Of a stretch of 7,482 bases of DNA, positions 1-7,482 are shown piece after piece. The first letter of the stretch is position 1; each line of letters begins with the position of its first letter. The notes under the pieces were generated by a model that was not told the origin of the DNA, ran no database searches, and worked only from the letters and a program-made list of their open reading frames with translations. The position numbers were made by a program, and so were the translations under genes. This DNA comes from Actinomycetes bacterium (lineage in GTDB: Bacteria; Actinomycetota; Acidimicrobiia; Acidimicrobiales; Palsa-688). Location of the stretch: contig JAKBBS010000158.1 of NCBI GenBank assembly GCA_021808425.1, forward strand, positions 1-7,482. Direction: 5' to 3'.

Positions 1-552
1 GCGGGGCACCGTCTCGACGTTGTGGTTGAGAATCTCGGGGCGCACGGCGAAGACGGCGTTCAGCGCCTCGGGGTCGCCTTTGAAATCTGAAATCAAAAGT
101 TCGAGCGCGACACCAGGAGACCGGCGCCTCACAGCTTCGACGGTGGCTACGAAACCCGACGCTCCCCCATCGTCGAGGTCGTCCCGGGCGACGCAGGTAA
201 TGACAGCATGTGCGAGACCGAGCTGCGAGACGGCCTCCGCGACCCGTTCGGGCTCCCCAGGATCGAGAGGCAACGGTTTGGCGGTGTCGACTAGGCAGAA
301 CCCGCACGCTCTGGTGCATCGCTCCCCGTTGATCATGAACGTGGCCGTACCGTCAGCCCAGCACTCGTATATGTTCGGGCAGCCGGCCTCTTCGCAGACC
401 GTCACGAGACCGAGAGTCCTGACCATCTTGCGAAGCGCCCGGTAGTCCGCGCCGAGACGGGCGGGGGCGCGAAGCCAAGCGGGCTTTCGCTCGTCGACGG
501 CGAGGCCGCCTTTCGGGTCCACGCCTGCCTGCACGAGGCGGCGGTCGATCAT
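1..552 (-). other. lipA: LipA (lipoyl synthase) region with its own possible internal start
   Basis: This is the LipA part of the fused frame, listed separately because it could also be made alone. An ATG at 552-550 sits where free actinobacterial LipA proteins begin, about 22 residues before the conserved ERKPAWL segment. A GGAGG lies at 564-568, 11 bases upstream of that ATG, somewhat longer than ideal spacing. The ATG is followed by A, giving the ATGA string typical of stop/start overlaps, but here the TGA is out of frame with the lipB reading. LipA uses two 4Fe-4S clusters and SAM to insert sulfur at C6 and C8 of the protein-bound octanoyl group. All six cluster cysteines are present; the C-terminal part lies beyond the window. 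Confidence 0.85.
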
Positions 553-1311
553 CCGGACCGGCACCTCCGGGCCACTGCGAGCCGCTGTGAAAGCGGCTAC
601 TTCCCCAGGAAGCACCTTCCACGCCACGCCATGACTGTCCAGCTGGGCGGCCCCCCAGATCCGCTCCGCCACCACAGTCGCGGCCTCGACAACCCGGCGC
701 ATGTCGACGCGCAGGCCCTCGGCTGCCAGCGAAGTGACAGGCTTGTCGGCGATGCCGCATGGGATGATGTGGGTGAACATCTCCATGTCGGGGTCGACGT
801 TCAGGGCGAAGCCGTGCATCGAACGGCCCCTCGAGACGCGCACCCCCACGGCGGCGATCTTCCGGGGGTTCGGGCCGGACGGGTCCACCCATACGCCCGG
901 GTACCCGTCGAGTCGGCCGGCGCCGTGCAGTCCGAGCTCGTCGAGGGTGTCGATCACCAACTGCTCGATCCGCCAAACGTGAGCCGGGGACGACCCCGGT
1001 CCGCGCGGTACGGCCATGACGGGGTAGCCGACCAGCTGGCCGGGGCCGTGGAAGGTGACGTCACCTCCGCGGTCGACGCGTTCGAGCTCCGCCCCGACCG
1101 ACGCGGGTTCGACGAGCACGTGCTCCGGCTTCGCCCTCACCCCGAGGGTGTAGACGGGGTTGTGCTCGACGAGCAGGAGCCAGTCGCCCGATCCGTACGC
1201 CCACAGGCCCTTCTGCAACGCCCACGCGTCGCGGTAGCGGACCCGTCCGAGCCAGCGGACCCGCAGCGTCGAGACGCCGGGCGCTGGACGGCGCAGGGGC
1301 TCGCAGTTCAC
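1..1311 (-). CDS. LipB-LipA fusion: octanoyltransferase + lipoyl synthase, C-terminus off the left edge
   Basis: One open frame reads as two lipoate-synthesis enzymes in series. I checked every codon from the GTG at 1311 to base 1 and found no stop. Residues about 12-235 are LipB, which moves octanoate from acyl carrier protein to the E2 lipoyl lysine. They contain DRGGDVTFHGPGQ (80-92), RKIAAVGVRVS with the family's catalytic Lys151, and PCGI with catalytic Cys185. Residues about 254-437 are LipA, the radical-SAM sulfur inserter. They carry the auxiliary-cluster cysteines C306, C311 and C317 (CEEAGCPNIYEC), the SAM-cluster cysteines C332, C336 and C339 (CTRACGFC), and NHNVETVP at the edge. 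About 100 or more LipA residues are missing. The GTG start shares GTGA with the stop of the E2 gene. LipB and LipA are normally separate proteins. Alternatives are internal initiation at 552, or an indel near the end of lipB hiding a normal overlap. Domain identities are very secure; the single polypeptide is likely. Confidence 0.93.
   Translation of the reverse strand, partial: MNCEPLRRPAPGVSTLRVRWLGRVRYRDAWALQKGLWAYGSGDWLLLVEHNPVYTLGVRAKPEHVLVEPASVGAELERVDRGGDVTFHGPGQLVGYPVMAVPRGPGSSPAHVWRIEQLVIDTLDELGLHGAGRLDGYPGVWVDPSGPNPRKIAAVGVRVSRGRSMHGFALNVDPDMEMFTHIIPCGIADKPVTSLAAEGLRVDMRRVVEAATVVAERIWGAAQLDSHGVAWKVLPGEVAAFTAARSGPEVPVRMIDRRLVQAGVDPKGGLAVDERKPAWLRAPARLGADYRALRKMVRTLGLVTVCEEAGCPNIYECWADGTATFMINGERCTRACGFCLVDTAKPLPLDPGEPERVAEAVSQLGLAHAVITCVARDDLDDGGASGFVATVEAVRRRSPGVALELLISDFKGDPEALNAVFAVRPEILNHNVETVPR
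564..568 (-). promoter_or_regulatory. Possible internal ribosome binding site for free LipA
   Basis: On the minus strand a GGAGG lies 11 bases upstream of the in-frame ATG at 552. It is inside the lipB-lipA linker coding sequence. It may be a relic of a separate lipA gene or a working internal start that yields free LipA besides the fusion. In high-GC coding DNA such a motif can also occur by chance. Confidence 0.35.
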
Positions 1312-2786
1312 AGCTCGCCTGACCAGTCCCTTGTCTCGATCCCGTCTTTGACGGCCTTCAGGAATGCGGCTGCGTAGGCGCCGTCGAAGGCCCGGTGATC
1401 CCAGGAGAGCACCAGGTTGCCGACCGGGTGGACGGCGATGCCGTCGGAGCCGTCCGGGAGCTCGACAGCGACAGGCTTCTTGGTCACCCCGTCTGTCGAG
1501 AGTATGGCGACCTGCGGCTGGTTGATCACGGGGACCGTGATGAACGTGCCGAACGGCCCGGCGTTGGTGATTGTGAACGTACCGCCCGATATGTCGTCCA
1601 TCGTCAGGCGTCGTGCCCGGGCGCGCGCTGCAAGGTCGGAGATCTCTCGGGCGATGACACGCATGCGTTTTCCTTCGGCGGCGTGAACGACGGGAACCAG
1701 GAGGCCCTCGAAGTCCAAGTCGACCGCAATCCCGATGTTGAGCTCGTGGTGGACTATCAGCGCGTCGTCGCCGACCGAGCTGTTGACGTGGGGGAAGTCC
1801 TCGAGGGCGTCCACCACGGCACGCGTGACGAACGGCAGGTAGGTGAGCCCGAAGCCCTCGGCCGCCCTGAAGCGGTCCTTCTCGGCGCGCCGGACCCGCT
1901 CGACGCCCAGGTAGTCCACTTCGACAGCCACCATGGTGTGGGCGGACGTCTGCTTGGATCGGACCATGTGCTCGGCGGTGCGGCGGCGGATGTTCGTGAA
2001 CGGCACTATCTCGTCGGTGCTACCCACCGCGACCGGCGCAGTCGCCCCGGCAAACGCTGGCTTGGCGGGCGCGGAAGGAGCAGGCGGGGCCGAGCTTGAC
2101 GGGCGCGAGGATCCGGGGGCGCCCGAGGATCCGGGCGCGGGCTGTGCGGCCTGCGCACCTGGACTCTTGGGTGTCGAGCCGGAACTGATCGAGTCGATCA
2201 CTGCGAGCACGTCCGAGCGGGTGATCCGCCCGCCCGCGCCGCTTCCGACGATGCTCGAAGGGTCGAGGCCGTGCTCGGCGACGAGGCGGCGCACCACCGG
2301 GGAGAGGACCAGACCCTCCGAGGCGGACGGGCTCGGCGCCACTTGCGAAGGAGCGGGCGCGGTTGCGGCAGCTACAGGTGCAGGCTGGGAAGGCGGCGCT
2401 GGTTGGGGCGAGGTTGCCTGCGCCGACGGCTCCCCAACATTGTCGGCTTGGTCAGTCCCGTCGGTTCCGCCGCCGGCGTCGCCCTCTGCCATATCGGCCG
2501 GCTGCGAAGCGTCGTCCTGGCCGGGCGCGTCCGACGCCGAGGGTGCGCCATCGCCAGCCGAGATGACGGCGAGGCGCGTGCCTACATCGACTGTCTCGCC
2601 TTCCGCCACGAGGATCTCCGATACGACGCCGCCGACAGGAGAGGGAACCTCAGAGTCGACCTTGTCCGTCGAAACCTCGAAGAGGACCTCGTCCTCGGCG
2701 ATCGCGTCGCCTACCTGCTTCGCCCAACGCGTGATCGTCCCCTCGGTGACGGTCTCTCCAAGCTGGGGCATCGTGATGTCAGCCAA
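1308..2786 (-). CDS. sucB: Dihydrolipoamide acyltransferase, E2 of a 2-oxoacid dehydrogenase complex
   Basis: This E2 core protein (492 residues) carries the acyl group on a swinging lipoyl arm and transfers it to CoA. Domains in order: one lipoyl domain at 1-76 with the lipoylated Lys42 in STDKVDSE; an acidic then Pro/Ala-rich linker at about 77-158; a peripheral-subunit-binding domain that docks E1/E3 at about 160-197 (LSPVVRRLVAEHGLD); a second Ala/Pro/Ser linker at about 200-255; and the catalytic domain at about 258-488 with the active-site DHRAFDG (His464, Asp468). The TTG at 2784-2786 is chosen because it retains the full ADITMPQLGE start of the lipoyl domain and has GGAAGAGG 8 bases upstream. 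A start at the ATG 2769-2771 would cut into the domain. The gene overlaps lpd by 8 bp and lipB by 4 bp. Whether the complex is specific for pyruvate, 2-oxoglutarate or branched-chain substrates cannot be read here because no E1 gene is in the window; sucB is the closest actinobacterial naming, not a proof. Confidence 0.95.
   Translation of the reverse strand: MADITMPQLGETVTEGTITRWAKQVGDAIAEDEVLFEVSTDKVDSEVPSPVGGVVSEILVAEGETVDVGTRLAVISAGDGAPSASDAPGQDDASQPADMAEGDAGGGTDGTDQADNVGEPSAQATSPQPAPPSQPAPVAAATAPAPSQVAPSPSASEGLVLSPVVRRLVAEHGLDPSSIVGSGAGGRITRSDVLAVIDSISSGSTPKSPGAQAAQPAPGSSGAPGSSRPSSSAPPAPSAPAKPAFAGATAPVAVGSTDEIVPFTNIRRRTAEHMVRSKQTSAHTMVAVEVDYLGVERVRRAEKDRFRAAEGFGLTYLPFVTRAVVDALEDFPHVNSSVGDDALIVHHELNIGIAVDLDFEGLLVPVVHAAEGKRMRVIAREISDLAARARARRLTMDDISGGTFTITNAGPFGTFITVPVINQPQVAILSTDGVTKKPVAVELPDGSDGIAVHPVGNLVLSWDHRAFDGAYAAAFLKAVKDGIETRDWSGEL
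2106..2135 (-). repeat. 12-base tandem repeat in the E2 interdomain linker
   Basis: CGAGGATCCGGG (plus strand) occurs at 2106-2117 and 2124-2135, an 18-base period. In the E2 protein it encodes a repeated APGSS unit in the Ala/Pro linker between the subunit-binding and catalytic domains. Such linkers tolerate repeat expansion, so it is probably only slippage. Confidence 0.5.
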
Positions 2787-4185
2787 CGTGCAAACCTCTT
2801 CCGGTTAGGGCGAGAACCGTCTCGCCGAAAGTCTCCGACAGCGTCGGATGGGGCTGTATGTACTGTCCTACTTCGGAGGGAGTGGCCTCCCAGTTGACCG
2901 CCAGATAACCCTGGCCCAGTTGCTCGGTGACCCACGGCCCCACCATGTGGACCCCGAGGATGCGTCCGGCCTTCCCGTCGGGAAGCTTCTCGGCTATCAC
3001 CTTGACCATACCTTCGGGTTCGCCGACTATGAGGGCTCGCCCGTTGCCACCGAACGGGTCTTTCTTGGTGACCACGTCGAAGCCGGCCTCCCGGGCGGCC
3101 TCCTCGGACAGCCCGGCGAACGCCACCTCCGGGTGACAGTAGATGCACCACGGGACCTTCGTATAGTCGACGGGGACCACCTTGTCGCCGAGGATCTGAT
3201 CGATGACAACGACCGCCTCCGCGAACCCGACGTGAGCGAGGGCCGGCGTGTCGACAAGGTCACCCGCCGCGAAAACACCGGGCTCTGCGGTCCGCATGTA
3301 CTCATCCACAACGACGAACCCGCGGCCGTCGACCTCGACGGCGGTGCCGTCCAAACCCAGGTTCGCCGAGCACGGACGCCGCCCCACCGATACAACGACC
3401 GCCTCGACGTTCACGCTCTCCCCCTCGCCGAACGACACTGTCGTGGAACACCCGTCCTCGGCGGGCGTATGACCGGTGACGGCCACCCCCGTGCGGACCT
3501 CGATGCCCCGCTTCTTGAACGAGCGCGCAACAACGTCGGCCACGTCTTTGTCACAGCCGGGAAGTATCTTCGGCAGCGCTTCGAGCACTGTCACTTTGCA
3601 GCCGAGGTCGGAGAGCATCGAAGCGAACTCGCAGCCGATCGCCCCGCCGCCGATGACGACCGCTGACGCCGGAAGGCGTTCCAGGTCGAGCACTTCGTCA
3701 GAAGTGAGAACGAGACGCCCATCGACCTCGAAGCCGGGAATCGTCCTCGGGACGGAACCGGACGCCAGAATGACGTGCTTTCCGACCAGTTCGGTGCCGT
3801 CGTCGACGATCACCTTGTGACCAGCCCCGAGGATGGCGACACCGTTGAAGGTCGTGACCTTGCGCTTCTTCATCAGTCCCTGCAGGCCGGTCCACAGCTG
3901 GTCCACCACCTTCTGCTTTCGCGCCTGGGACTGCGCGAACTCGATGACGGGCGGGTCGGCGACGATGCCGAACTCTTCGGCTCCGATGACAGTCCGGTAG
4001 ACCGTCGCCGTCTCGAGGAACTCCTTCGCCGGGATGCAACCGCGGTGCAGGCACGTACCGCCAACCTTGTCCTTCTCAACAACGGCGATATTCAGCCCGG
4101 CAAGACCGCCGCGCAGCGCCGCTGCGTAGCCGGCTGGGCCACCGCCGATTATCACAACGTCGAATTCCTGGGCCGTGAGGACCAC
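2779..4185 (-). CDS. lpd: Dihydrolipoamide dehydrogenase (E3)
   Basis: This FAD- and NAD-dependent disulfide reductase (468 residues, the usual family length) reoxidises dihydrolipoyl groups of E2, and of the glycine cleavage H protein. Visible features: FAD-binding GGGPAG at 14-19; the redox-active disulfide Cys45-Cys50 in GGTCLHRGCIPAK; NAD-binding GGGAIGCE at 179-186; the second FAD motif AAGD at 306-309; and the dimer-interface catalytic pair His446/Glu451 in HPTLSE. It is the first gene of the leftward operon with E2 and lipB-lipA, which matches its job in the complex. The start is odd. An in-frame TAG (4191-4189) leaves GTG 4185-4183 as the first possible start, yet the perfect AGGAGG (4190-4185) overlaps this codon. 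The next in-frame GTG (4155-4153) would remove most of the first FAD-binding strand. The exact start is therefore uncertain; the identity is not. Confidence 0.96.
   Translation of the reverse strand: MVLTAQEFDVVIIGGGPAGYAAALRGGLAGLNIAVVEKDKVGGTCLHRGCIPAKEFLETATVYRTVIGAEEFGIVADPPVIEFAQSQARKQKVVDQLWTGLQGLMKKRKVTTFNGVAILGAGHKVIVDDGTELVGKHVILASGSVPRTIPGFEVDGRLVLTSDEVLDLERLPASAVVIGGGAIGCEFASMLSDLGCKVTVLEALPKILPGCDKDVADVVARSFKKRGIEVRTGVAVTGHTPAEDGCSTTVSFGEGESVNVEAVVVSVGRRPCSANLGLDGTAVEVDGRGFVVVDEYMRTAEPGVFAAGDLVDTPALAHVGFAEAVVVIDQILGDKVVPVDYTKVPWCIYCHPEVAFAGLSEEAAREAGFDVVTKKDPFGGNGRALIVGEPEGMVKVIAEKLPDGKAGRILGVHMVGPWVTEQLGQGYLAVNWEATPSEVGQYIQPHPTLSETFGETVLALTGRGLHVG
2795..2802 (-). promoter_or_regulatory. 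Ribosome binding site of the E2 gene, inside the end of lpd
   Basis: GGAAGAGG on the minus strand ends 8 bases before the TTG start at 2786. It lies within the last codons of lpd, whose stop (2779-2781) falls after the E2 start, so E2 translation is probably coupled to lpd. This site decides in favour of the TTG start. Confidence 0.7.
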
Positions 4186-4355: not shown

Positions 4356-5168
4356 ATGACGGCTAATCCGACCAAGACCCCCAGGGTGGACGCAGCGGAC
4401 ACCGACGACCATGACCCTCTCGTCATCGCCGGGCGTTCCTTTCGCTCCCGGCTCTTCCTCGGCACCGGGAAATACGCCTCCAACGACCAGCTTGCGGGCG
4501 CCATCGCGGCCAGCGGGACGGAGATAGTTACCGTAGCGCTGCGGCGCATAGACCCTTCGGCGTCGGGGGACATCCTCGACGCAATCCCGGAGTCCGTGCT
4601 TGTGCTCACCAACACTTCCGGGGCGATCGACGCCCCCGAAGCGCTTCGCCTCGCCCGCCTGGCGCGCGCAGCTGGGCTGCCGGAATGGATCAAGCTCGAG
4701 GTCACCCCGGATCCCCGCCACCTGCTGCCAGATCCCGTGGAGACCCTCCTCGCAGCCGAGCAGATGTGCCGCGAAGGCTTCACAGTGCTGCCCTACTGCC
4801 CGGCCGACCCGGTGCTCGCGAAGCGTCTGGAGGAAGTCGGCTGCGCCACCGTCATGCCACTCGGATCGTGGATCGGCTCGAATCAAGGGCTGCGCACAAG
4901 GGACGCCATAGAGATGATCGTGGCACAGGCAACCGTCCCGGTCGTCGTGGACGCCGGGCTCGGCGCCCCCAGCCACGCCGCGCTCGCCATGGAGCTCGGC
5001 GCGTCGGCGGTACTCGTCAACACGGCGATAGCGACAGCTTCCGACCCCGAAGCGATGGCGGCGGCGTTCCGCCTCGCGGTCGTTGCGGGCCGTGCCGGTT
5101 TCCGGGCAGGGCTGCCGGCCGCCGGCAGTCCATCCGCCTCGTCACCACTCACCGGCTTCCTAGGATGA
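4356..5168 (+). CDS. thiG: Thiazole synthase ThiG
   Basis: ThiG condenses 1-deoxy-D-xylulose 5-phosphate, dehydroglycine and sulfur from ThiS-thiocarboxylate into the thiazole phosphate of thiamine. The 270-residue protein spans the whole TIM-barrel family: [19 protein letters not shown] near the start, the Schiff-base lysine Lys113 in [17 protein letters not shown] at 169-179, [14 protein letters not shown] at 196-209, VNTAIA at 221-226, and the typical SPLTGFLG end. About 20 extra, charged N-terminal residues precede the conserved part. The ATG is well placed after the riboswitch ribosome binding site. Two family motifs differ: the segment usually read as MPLGAPIGS has SW instead of AP, and NTSGA replaces the common NTAGC. 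It overlaps thiH through ATGA. No thiS, thiF or thiO gene is in the window, so the sulfur carrier must be encoded elsewhere. Confidence 0.96.
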
Positions 5169-6352
5169 CCACGATCCCAGTCACTACCGCACGGTCCGAC
5201 ATGGTGCCCGTTGCGATCGACTCGCGCCCCGCACATGCACCGGAGGGTTCCGCCGCTGCAGCCGTGGTGGCGACTCCGCTGCCCGCGCTACGCCAGCGGG
5301 TTACGAGCGCCGGCCCGGCACAAGTCGAGCGAGCGCTTCGAAGCGCTAGGCCTACCCTTGACGACTTCGCTGCGCTGCTGTCCGGGACCGCCCTCGACCG
5401 CCTCGAAGAGTTGGCCGCTCGAGCGGCGCAGATCACACGGGCCCGCTTCGGCTCGGCGGTACGACTCTTCTCCCCCCTCTACCTGTCGAACGAGTGCGTT
5501 TCGACGTGCACCTACTGCGGCTTTTCCGCAACCAACACGATCGCCAGGCGGACGCTCCGCCTCGACGAAGTGGAGTCGGAGGCCCGGGAGCTGGCCCGCC
5601 GGGGTTTCCGCCACGTCCTGCTCGTCGCTGGCGAGCACGCGCGTATCGTGAGCAAGGACTATCTGGAAAAAGTCGTCCAGGTGGTCTCCCCGCTCTTCGC
5701 GCAGGTCAGCGTCGAAGTCCAGGTCTGGGACACAGCCACCTACCGTCGGCTCCTCGACGCCGGCTGCGACGGGGTCGTCGTCTACCAGGAGTCCTACGAT
5801 CCAGGCACCTACTCCGAAGTCCACCTCAAAGGCAAGAAACGCAACTACATCTGGCGTCTCGCAGCTCCCGACCGGGCCGCAGAGGCCGGGATGCGACGCC
5901 TCGGTATAGGCACACTTCTCGGGCTGCACCCCGACTGGCGTTCGGAGGCACTCCTCCTGGCGTCCCACGCTGACGCCTTGGCGCGCCGGTGGTGGCGCTG
6001 CGAAATACAGGTCGCCCTACCGCGTCTACGCCCCGCCGCCGGCGGCTTCGAACCGTCCGACCCCATCGACGACAGGTCATTTGCCCAGCTTCTGTGCGCG
6101 CTGCGGATATTCATGCCCGACCTCGCGATCACGATGTCCACTCGGGAGCCACCCGAGTTGCGCGACGGGCTCGTCCGCCTCGGAGTGACCTCGATGTCGG
6201 CCGGATCGCACACCGAGCCTGGCGGCTACGCCGAGTCAAGCGACGCCGAGCCGCAGTTCGAGATCTCCGACACCCGGTCCCCCGCCGAGGTCGCCAGGGC
6301 GCTCCGCGCTATGGGTATAGAGCCCGTATGGAAAGACTGGCAGCGGGCCTGA
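5165..6352 (+). CDS. thiH: 2-iminoacetate synthase (tyrosine lyase) ThiH
   Basis: This radical-SAM enzyme cleaves tyrosine to p-cresol and dehydroglycine (2-iminoacetate), the glycine-derived precursor used by ThiG. The 395-residue protein shows the SAM-cluster motif [10 protein letters not shown] with Cys111, Cys115 and Cys118, then the ThiH-typical [26 protein letters not shown] (about residues 210-229), a GIGTLLGL segment, and the C-terminal [13 protein letters not shown] region of the family. The first about 60 residues are poorly conserved and Ala/Pro-rich. The ATG at 5165 overlaps the thiG stop (ATGA), so the two are translationally coupled and both sit under the TPP riboswitch. The same frame stays open far upstream across thiG, but that part is a shadow. 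Many actinobacteria use the oxygen-dependent glycine oxidase ThiO instead, so ThiH hints at a low-oxygen or flexible lifestyle. Confidence 0.96.
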
Positions 6353-6548: not shown

Positions 6549-6842
6549 ATGACGCAGCAATCACCAGGCGTGCCACCTCCCGCCTTCGACGCGAGCCTGC
6601 GTTACGCGCTCGACAGCGAGGTGGCACTTAGAGAGGAACCTTTCGGCGCGCTCGCCTACAACTATTCGAACCGGAGGCTGACTTTCCTTCGCTCCATCGC
6701 CCTGCGCGAACTGGTTCGCTCCCTCGCCGACTTCGACTCGGCCGGAGACGCGGTCGTCCGGTCGATCCCAGCAGCGTCCCGGCCGTCCTACCTGCGTGCT
6801 CTAGCAGGGCTCGCAGAGAGCGGAATGATCCGTGCCTGCTGA
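6549..6842 (+). CDS. mftB: Mycofactocin biosynthesis chaperone MftB
   Basis: A 97-residue protein of the RiPP recognition element type. It binds the MftA leader and presents the peptide to the radical-SAM enzyme MftC. Recognition rests on the family segment EVALREEPFGALAYNYSNR (about residues 19-37) followed by RLTFLRS and a C-terminal helix-rich part, on length, and on position between mftA and mftC. It begins at the base after the mftA stop codon and has no clear Shine-Dalgarno of its own, so it is probably translated by ribosomes finishing mftA. Its end overlaps the start of mftC by 11 bp. Nothing is truncated. Confidence 0.95.
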   Translation: MTQQSPGVPPPAFDASLRYALDSEVALREEPFGALAYNYSNRRLTFLRSIALRELVRSLADFDSAGDAVVRSIPAASRPSYLRALAGLAESGMIRAC

Positions 6843-7482
6843 ACGCACCCGTCTCGTGGACCAGCTAGCGACCGGCTTGGACGCCCCGATCTGCCTTACG
6901 TGGGAGTTGACCTATGGTTGCAACCTCGCGTGTCTTCACTGCCTGTCCTCGTCGGGCCGGCGTGACCCTCACGAGCTGACCAACACCCAAGCCCGCGGAC
7001 TGATCGACGAGATGGCCGACATGTCAGTGTTCTACGTCAACATCGGCGGGGGTGAGCCGACGATCCGTCCCGACTTCTACGATCTCATCGGCTACGCAGT
7101 GGACCGCAAAGTGGGTGTCAAGTTCTCCACGAACGGCACGACCATGACACCCGCACGCGCCAGGCGCATCGCCGCCATGGACTACGTCGACGTCCAGGTA
7201 TCACTCGACGGTGTCGACTCCTCCACCAACGACGCCCTTCGAGGCGCGGGTAGCTACGCTGCGGCGCGCTGTGCGATGGACAACCTCGCGTCGAGCGGTT
7301 TCGCTGACTTCAAGATCTCAGTCGTCGTCACCGCTGACAACGTCGCCCAGCTGGACGGATTCGCCGAGATGGCTGCCAGCTACGGTGCCACGCTGAGGCT
7401 GACCAGGCTGCGGCCGTCGGGACGGGGGGCTTCGGTCTGGGAACGACTTCACCTGAGTAACGCCCAGCAGGTCGCCCTCTAC
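6832..7482 (+). CDS. mftC: Mycofactocin radical-SAM maturase MftC, C-terminus off the right edge
   Basis: MftC uses SAM and iron-sulfur clusters first to decarboxylate the C-terminal tyrosine of MftA and then to form a carbon-carbon bond to the neighbouring valine. The first 217 residues are present. They include the family entry ICLTWELTYGCNLACLHC with the SAM-cluster cysteines Cys30, Cys34 and Cys37, LSSSGRRDP, the SAM-binding NIGGGEPTIRPDF, VGVKFSTNGT, and VQVSLDG. The C-terminal SPASM-type domain with auxiliary-cluster cysteines lies beyond the edge. The GTG at 6832 is the likely start. It overlaps mftB by 11 bp, matches the usual N-terminal length, and has purine-rich GAGAG/GCGGAA sequence upstream. 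The order mftA-mftB-mftC is the standard one; mftD, mftE and mftF would be expected next. Confidence 0.95.
   Translation, partial: MPAERTRLVDQLATGLDAPICLTWELTYGCNLACLHCLSSSGRRDPHELTNTQARGLIDEMADMSVFYVNIGGGEPTIRPDFYDLIGYAVDRKVGVKFSTNGTTMTPARARRIAAMDYVDVQVSLDGVDSSTNDALRGAGSYAAARCAMDNLASSGFADFKISVVVTADNVAQLDGFAEMAASYGATLRLTRLRPSGRGASVWERLHLSNAQQVALY

What the first reader, a model, noticed from the sequence alone, without database searches (positions are those of the whole stretch)
1..1311. LipB and LipA encoded as one continuous polypeptide
From the GTG at 1311 to the window edge there is no stop in the frame, and both halves keep their catalytic residues (LipB Lys151, Cys185; LipA cysteines 306/311/317 and 332/336/339). 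The linker is about 20-40 residues. The two act one after the other on the same lipoyl domain, so a fusion could hand the octanoylated E2 arm directly to the sulfur inserter. I do not recall a characterised LipB-LipA fusion. An indel near the junction that hides a normal gene overlap is the main alternative: a six-C run lies at 651-656, and a TGA in another frame overlaps the ATG at 552.
Basis: partly seen in the sequence, partly recalled or inferred. Interest (0 to 1): 0.78.

Follow-up and report, generated by a model that had tools for sequence, protein, structure and literature searches.

The report
Fused LipB–LipA lipoate-making enzyme
In a large group of actinobacteria the two enzymes that build the cofactor lipoic acid, one attaching the fatty arm and the other adding the sulfur, are made as a single protein, which seems to have gone unremarked.

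Summary
Minus-strand ORF 1-1311 is open to the window edge and encodes LipB followed by the N-terminal half of LipA. No indel hides two genes: the closest relative (P0002, 563 aa, 95% identical) is a complete fusion, and the 120 listed database hits are all 540-617 aa proteins with both domains. In a sample of one class (taken to be Acidimicrobiia), 268 of 275 genomes with a match keep one frame across the junction; none of the other seven shows two complete neighbouring genes. Catalytic residues of both halves are invariant in 87 aligned fusions. In 40 of 40 genomes picked for the test the fused LipA is the only one above cut-off. Trees put these fusions in one clade, so one old fusion is likely. 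Other LipB-LipA fusions occur elsewhere (Propionispora, others), so the architecture recurs. AlphaFold gives pTM 0.92 for two fusions 43-44% identical, suggesting a fixed domain arrangement. The gene overlaps the E2 gene that encodes its likely substrate. Best reading: a true bifunctional octanoyltransferase/lipoyl synthase; hand-over of the lipoyl domain between the sites is plausible but unproven. No description was found in the paper searches. New variant of a known kind.

The parts
1..1311 (-). lipB-lipA fusion gene (GTG start at 1311; 3' end beyond the window edge)
   Evidence: full-length relative P0002, 563 aa, 95% identical
682..1272 (-). LipB octanoyltransferase domain, residues 14-210 (Lys151 codon 859-861, Cys185 codon 757-759)
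   Evidence: NF010925 match to residues 14-210; Lys and Cys invariant in 87 fusions
493..681 (-). stretch between the two profile matches, residues 211-273, holding a variable linker and a short helix (PVRM(I/L)DRRL) before LipA
   Evidence: alignment, length spread; helix 253-261 and low-confidence 240-250 in the P0002 model
1..492 (-). LipA lipoyl synthase domain, N-terminal part, residues 274-437: auxiliary-cluster Cys306/311/317 and radical-SAM Cys332/336/339
   Evidence: NF004019, TIGR00510; cysteines invariant in 87 fusions
1308..2786 (-). E2 component of a 2-oxoacid dehydrogenase with one lipoyl domain (residues 3-75), the likely substrate; its last bases overlap the fusion's GTG start
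   Evidence: PF00364, PF02817, PF00198; best NCBIfam hit TIGR02927 SucB_Actino 368 bits, below its 423 cut-off; junction sequence printed
2779..4185 (-). dihydrolipoyl dehydrogenase (Lpd, E3)
   Evidence: TIGR01350 477.5 bits, cut-off 408.8; Lpd within 6 kb upstream of the fusion in 41 of 41 loci

Best explanation
This is a true bifunctional enzyme made as one chain. The N-terminal LipB domain takes octanoate from octanoyl-ACP through its Cys/Lys pair and puts it on the lysine of a lipoyl domain (E2 of the overlapping upstream gene, or GcvH). The C-terminal LipA domain, a radical-SAM enzyme with an auxiliary [4Fe-4S] cluster, then inserts sulfur at C6 and C8 of the same arm. Shown here: one uninterrupted frame, both sets of catalytic residues, class-wide conservation, no second LipA over cut-off in 40 genomes, linkage to lpd and often E2. 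Inferred from established LipB and LipA biochemistry: the two reactions. Inferred more weakly: the fusion holds the two sites in a fixed arrangement, so a lipoyl domain can pass from one to the other without being lost, and supplies them 1:1.
For: Continuous ORF and full-length relatives. 268 of 275 matched genomes of the class fused across the junction. All catalytic residues invariant in 87 fusions, the others 42-84% identical to P0002 (22 database proteins and 65 of 102 fused loci, picked to be diverse). NF004019 over cut-off only in the fused protein in 40 of 40 picked genomes. PF21948: the fused protein is the best hit in 40 of 40 and the only hit in 8 of 40. Fused rows form one branch of the LipA tree, SH-aLRT 96, after five contig-edge or frame-broken rows were dropped. 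pLDDT 91.4 and 93.3, pTM 0.92 in both models of fusions 43-44% identical. Fold matches to M. tuberculosis LipA 5exk and LipB 1w66. Lpd upstream in 41 of 41 loci, E2 within 2.5 kb in 31 of 41.
Against: No biochemistry or proteomics; the 60-kDa product is not shown. Linker length varies from 4 to 151 aa, which speaks against a tightly constrained tether. 32 of 40 genomes hold a second, weaker PF21948 protein that could be a ligase. Two genomes, G096 and G195, hold a LipB ending without LipA, nested among fused ones; G069 has a second partial LipB at a contig edge.
Confidence: 0.88

Rival explanations
1. A sequencing or assembly indel joins two normal overlapping genes.
Against: P0002 and 25 other relatives align colinearly over the junction; 268 of 275 genomes keep the frame. 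In G219 the junction itself is open and the frame breaks inside LipA.
Confidence: 0.01
2. The fused reading frame exists, but an internal start (window ATG 552, with GGAGGTG upstream) also makes free LipA, so the cell holds fusion plus LipA.
For: A Shine-Dalgarno-like GGAGGTG precedes the ATG at 552.
Against: Over 122 fused loci (a few overlapping) only 53 have an ATG in the linker, and start codons there carry such a motif about as often (15 of 394) as those inside the domains (113 of 3096).
Confidence: 0.07
3. One half is a passenger: the protein works only as lipoyl synthase (as databases name it), LipB being vestigial and replaced by the second PF21948 protein.
For: 32 of 40 genomes have another PF21948 hit of 34-86 bits. 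Where sources name the protein they call it lipoyl synthase or lipoic acid synthetase.
Against: LipB Lys and Cys invariant in 87 of 87; LipB domain over its curated cut-off; in 8 of 40 genomes it is the only PF21948 protein.
Confidence: 0.05
4. The fusion is only a way to co-express two enzymes in equal amounts, with no contact or hand-over between the sites.
For: lipB and lipA are neighbours in many other actinobacteria; linker length is free to vary.
Against: pTM 0.92 in two distant members suggests a defined arrangement; apparently independent fusions in the same order elsewhere.
Confidence: 0.45

Closest known systems
Separate LipB and LipA (e.g. M. tuberculosis 1w66 and 5exi/5exj/5exk)
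   Same: Same two families; Foldseek alignments at 45% (1w66) and 52-55% (5exi, 5exj, 5exk) identity; adjacent genes in many actinobacteria
   Different: Two proteins from two genes there; one chain here
NF053790 LplA_LipA_fuse, bifunctional lipoate--protein ligase/lipoyl synthase (NCBIfam)
   Same: By its name, an attaching enzyme fused to LipA in one chain; the LipA part matches (331.6 bits)
   Different: Only model positions 331-605 of 606 are matched; cut-off 800 not met; the N-terminal partner here is LipB
Short-linker LipB-LipA fusions P0151 (Propionispora sp. 2/2-37), P0154, P0134
   Same: Same order of the same domains in 509-516 aa
   Different: LipA halves 46-48% identical to P0002's and held in a starred set of 14 tree rows of which 9 are non-fused; much shorter linker; P0134 has Glu aligned to the LipB Lys. 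Probably independent fusions

Membership tests
LipB octanoyltransferase | LipB profile over curated cut-off | tested here: met
   NF010925 180.8 bits (cut-off 155), TIGR00214 146.1 (83.55)
LipB octanoyltransferase | Cys/Lys pair of the active site | tested here: met
   C185 and K151 invariant in 87 fusions; the role of the pair is in the title of Ma et al. 2006, seen only in a reference list
LipB octanoyltransferase | octanoyl transfer from ACP to a lipoyl domain | not testable with these tools
   needs an assay
LipA lipoyl synthase | LipA profile over curated cut-off | tested here: met
   P0002: NF004019 384 bits (203), TIGR00510 326 (310.25). The window's half alone passes NF004019 but not TIGR00510 (195 bits) because it is cut
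LipA lipoyl synthase | Cx4Cx5C auxiliary-cluster motif, Cx3Cx2C radical-SAM motif, C-terminal RSSY serine | tested here: met
   C306/C311/C317, C332/C336/C339, S542/S543 invariant; Cx4Cx5C and RSSY roles as in PMC12246082 passages. RSSY lies beyond the window edge
LipA lipoyl synthase | sulfur insertion at C6 and C8 | not testable with these tools
   needs an assay
NF053790 LplA_LipA_fuse | whole-length match over cut-off 800 | tested here: not met
   331.6 bits, LipA part only

The most novel reading that the evidence does not exclude
A lipoyl-assembly enzyme of fixed geometry: LipB and LipA are packed so that one lipoyl domain, freshly made from the overlapping E2 gene, docks once and is octanoylated and then sulfurated without release. 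This solution arose separately in at least two bacterial lineages.
Probability: 0.25. Interest if true: 0.68.

Novelty: new variant of a known kind. Interest (0 to 1): 0.5.

Why it matters
Where databases name these proteins, they say lipoyl synthase or lipoic acid synthetase, so the octanoyltransferase of a whole class can look missing from annotation. A natural fusion gives a ready system to test whether the octanoylated lipoyl domain is handed over or released between LipB and LipA, a step that is hard to address with separate enzymes. It may also mark the class as a shared derived character.

Tried and rejected
Indel/artefact: rejected by relatives. In-frame lipB-stop-lipA pairs in the best 80 loci looked like a half-way stage to fusion, but that list favours same-frame pairs because hits are ranked on the fused query; in the phylum sample only 4 of 19 neighbouring lipB-lipA pairs were in the same frame by my reading of the coordinates, so this was dropped. 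'Stops inside' reported in rows raised the idea of readthrough at the junction; in 19 of 19 such loci fetched for it (plus G170, fetched with them) no stop lies between the halves, the stops being at or beyond the ends; two more (G187, G290) are open across the junction too. Equal open-frame lengths for two-piece hits are not proof of one frame (the tool counts through stops, e.g. G406), so 40 such genomes were fetched: 40 of 40 fused. Internal start: no enrichment. First LipA tree (80 rows) showed 6 changes because five contig-edge or frame-broken rows (L075, L101, L102, L105, L111) were labelled separate; they were dropped (75 rows, 1 change). In the LipB tree (61 rows) 2 changes are needed with the lone LipB rows L104 and L106, 1 without. 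Most inner branches are not starred; the trees are 'quick'. Paper searches gave no described LipB-LipA fusion; three papers listed for the string LipB-LipA mean the pathway or the operon (passages). Only open-licence PMC papers are held. I saw passages of PMC10332631, PMC3917532, PMC12246082, PMC9307952, PMC3904984, PMC7186572 and PMC4398509, searched PMC4921024 (0 hits), and only listings of the rest, so this is not proof of absence in print.

Full report
Observation. The minus-strand frame from GTG 1311 to base 1 has no stop. hmmscan finds LipB at residues 14-210 and the first half of lipoyl synthase from 274/276 to 437; LipA is cut only by the window edge. P0002 is 95% identical over the whole window part and complete at 563 aa. 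NCBIfam places P0002 over the cut-offs of lipB (TIGR00214, NF010925) and lipA (TIGR00510, NF004019).

Is it an artefact? No. In 27 aligned rows (the window and 26 relatives) the junction is colinear. No whole genome is held for the window, so relatives were used. From a genome whose record is titled Acidimicrobiaceae bacterium (L001 = G002), 296 genomes of its class were searched: 275 have a match, 21 do not; these were not followed except G298, again without a match. I take the class to be Acidimicrobiia from the record titles; the tool does not name it. Counting: 150 genomes listed, plus G010 and G230, plus 58 of 60 and 58 of 63 have one frame over the junction, 268 of 275. Most rest on one alignment across the junction without a stop there. 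The doubtful ones were read directly: 19 of 19 with reported stops and G170, 40 of 40 with the hit in two or three pieces, then G183, G186, G187, G199, G215 and G290 and G225. The other seven: G107, G147, G204 and G238 have LipA at a contig edge; G219 has an open junction but a frame break inside LipA; G195 has LipA at a contig edge and a LipB that ends alone; G096 has a LipB that ends alone and no LipA found.

Outside the class. A sample of 149 genomes of the phylum had 125 with a match. Twelve carry the fusion in one frame and all 12 also belong to the class sample. Of the other 113 I read the loci of 38, none fused (in 16 of these LipB was not in the fetched stretch), and Dietzia (G003 = L045), with two genes. 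The remaining 74 were not read. Among the 80 named loci, 50 are fused, one (L075) is a LipA at a contig edge and 29 have separate genes, among them Dietzia, Nocardioides, Streptomyces and Rhodococcus. Most fused records are titled Acidimicrobiia, Acidimicrobiaceae, Actinomycetota and the like; L015, L027 and L030 are MAGs titled Bifidobacterium breve, and L079 is titled Acidobacteria. L079 lies at the same place of a contig of the same length as G010, a member of the class sample, so its title is probably wrong.

Descent. Fused rows are one side of a single branch in the LipA tree (47 fused, 28 separate, SH-aLRT 96) and need one change in the LipB tree if the two lone LipB rows are left out, two with them. 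So one fusion in the ancestor of the class is likely, with a possible later split in the G096/G195 line. A second search with a Bacillota LipB and long proteins (again 7995 candidates, 120 listed) gave 46 of 120 sequences with both halves, among them P0151 (Propionispora sp. 2/2-37), P0154 and P0134, which fall in a starred set of 14 rows with 9 non-fused ones; adding 11 of the 46 rows raised the changes to 4. The architecture has therefore probably arisen more than once; the quick tree does not fix how often.

Anatomy and function. In 87 fusions K151, C185, C306/C311/C317, C332/C336/C339 and S542/S543 are invariant. By sequence and fold the LipA half matches 5exi/5exk and the LipB half 1w66. 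The stretch between the halves is 4-151 aa, median 34, in 102 fused loci. AlphaFold models of P0002 and of the distant L044 protein (43-44% identical) have pTM 0.92, with confidence below 50 only at 240-250 and the ends in P0002 and nowhere in L044. For a two-domain protein that points to a defined domain arrangement, but coordinates and error matrix were not available. In 40 genomes picked among those with the fusion, the fused chain is the only NF004019 hit over cut-off and the best PF21948 hit; in 8 it is the only PF21948 hit, in 32 a weaker second one exists. In the 123 genomes no second full LipA appears; second LipB pieces appear in G069 and G154, both at contig edges, and in G195.

Context. 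The fusion starts inside the last codons of the E2 gene (GTGA overlap, 1308-1311) and lpd lies before that. Of 50 fused named loci, 41 have the fused frame starting at base 1500 or later: Lpd is within 6 kb upstream in 41 of 41, E2 within 2.5 kb in 31 of 41; the nine with shorter flanks were left out. The E2 carries one lipoyl domain. The enzyme is thus made next to its likely substrate.

Mechanism. LipB transfers octanoate from ACP to a lipoyl-domain lysine, LipA inserts two sulfur atoms (described in passages of PMC9307952, and PMC12246082). Two reactions on one chain follow from the retained residues; hand-over between the sites is inference and only moderately likely.

Novelty. NCBIfam has an LplA-LipA fusion model (NF053790); no LipB-LipA fusion model was among the matches. 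Searches of open papers found no description. It is a new variant of a known kind: known enzymes, an apparently undescribed class-wide fusion.

Noticed in passing
window 6549-7482 (+): Start of a mycofactocin cluster: MftB (TIGR03967, 83 bits over cut-off 33) overlapping the radical-SAM maturase MftC (TIGR03962), cut by the window edge.
   Followed up: no
window 4356-6352 (+): ThiG (PF05690) and ThiH 2-iminoacetate synthase (TIGR02351) back to back with lpd; L079 shows ThiH-ThiG beside Lpd and the fusion too.
   Followed up: no
P0124 and many other hits: LipB fused to a NUDIX domain, with source names such as Blastocatellia, Acidobacteria and Gemmatimonadetes; also LipB fused to E1 (P0129, P0210) and to E2 (P0132).
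   Followed up: partly
P0134: A short-linker LipB-LipA fusion in which the LipB active-site Lys column is Glu.
   Followed up: no
L016:1006-2856: A stop codon inside the LipB half where relatives have a conserved Trp; the rest of the fused frame continues. Error or decay, not resolved.
   Followed up: no
L104 (G096), L106 (G195): Two LipB genes that end without LipA, sisters to each other and nested among fused ones: a possible re-split of the fusion.
   Followed up: partly
L015, L027, L030, L079: Record titles (Bifidobacterium breve, Acidobacteria) that do not fit the fused, class-type sequence; L079 coincides with G010 of the class sample.
   Followed up: partly
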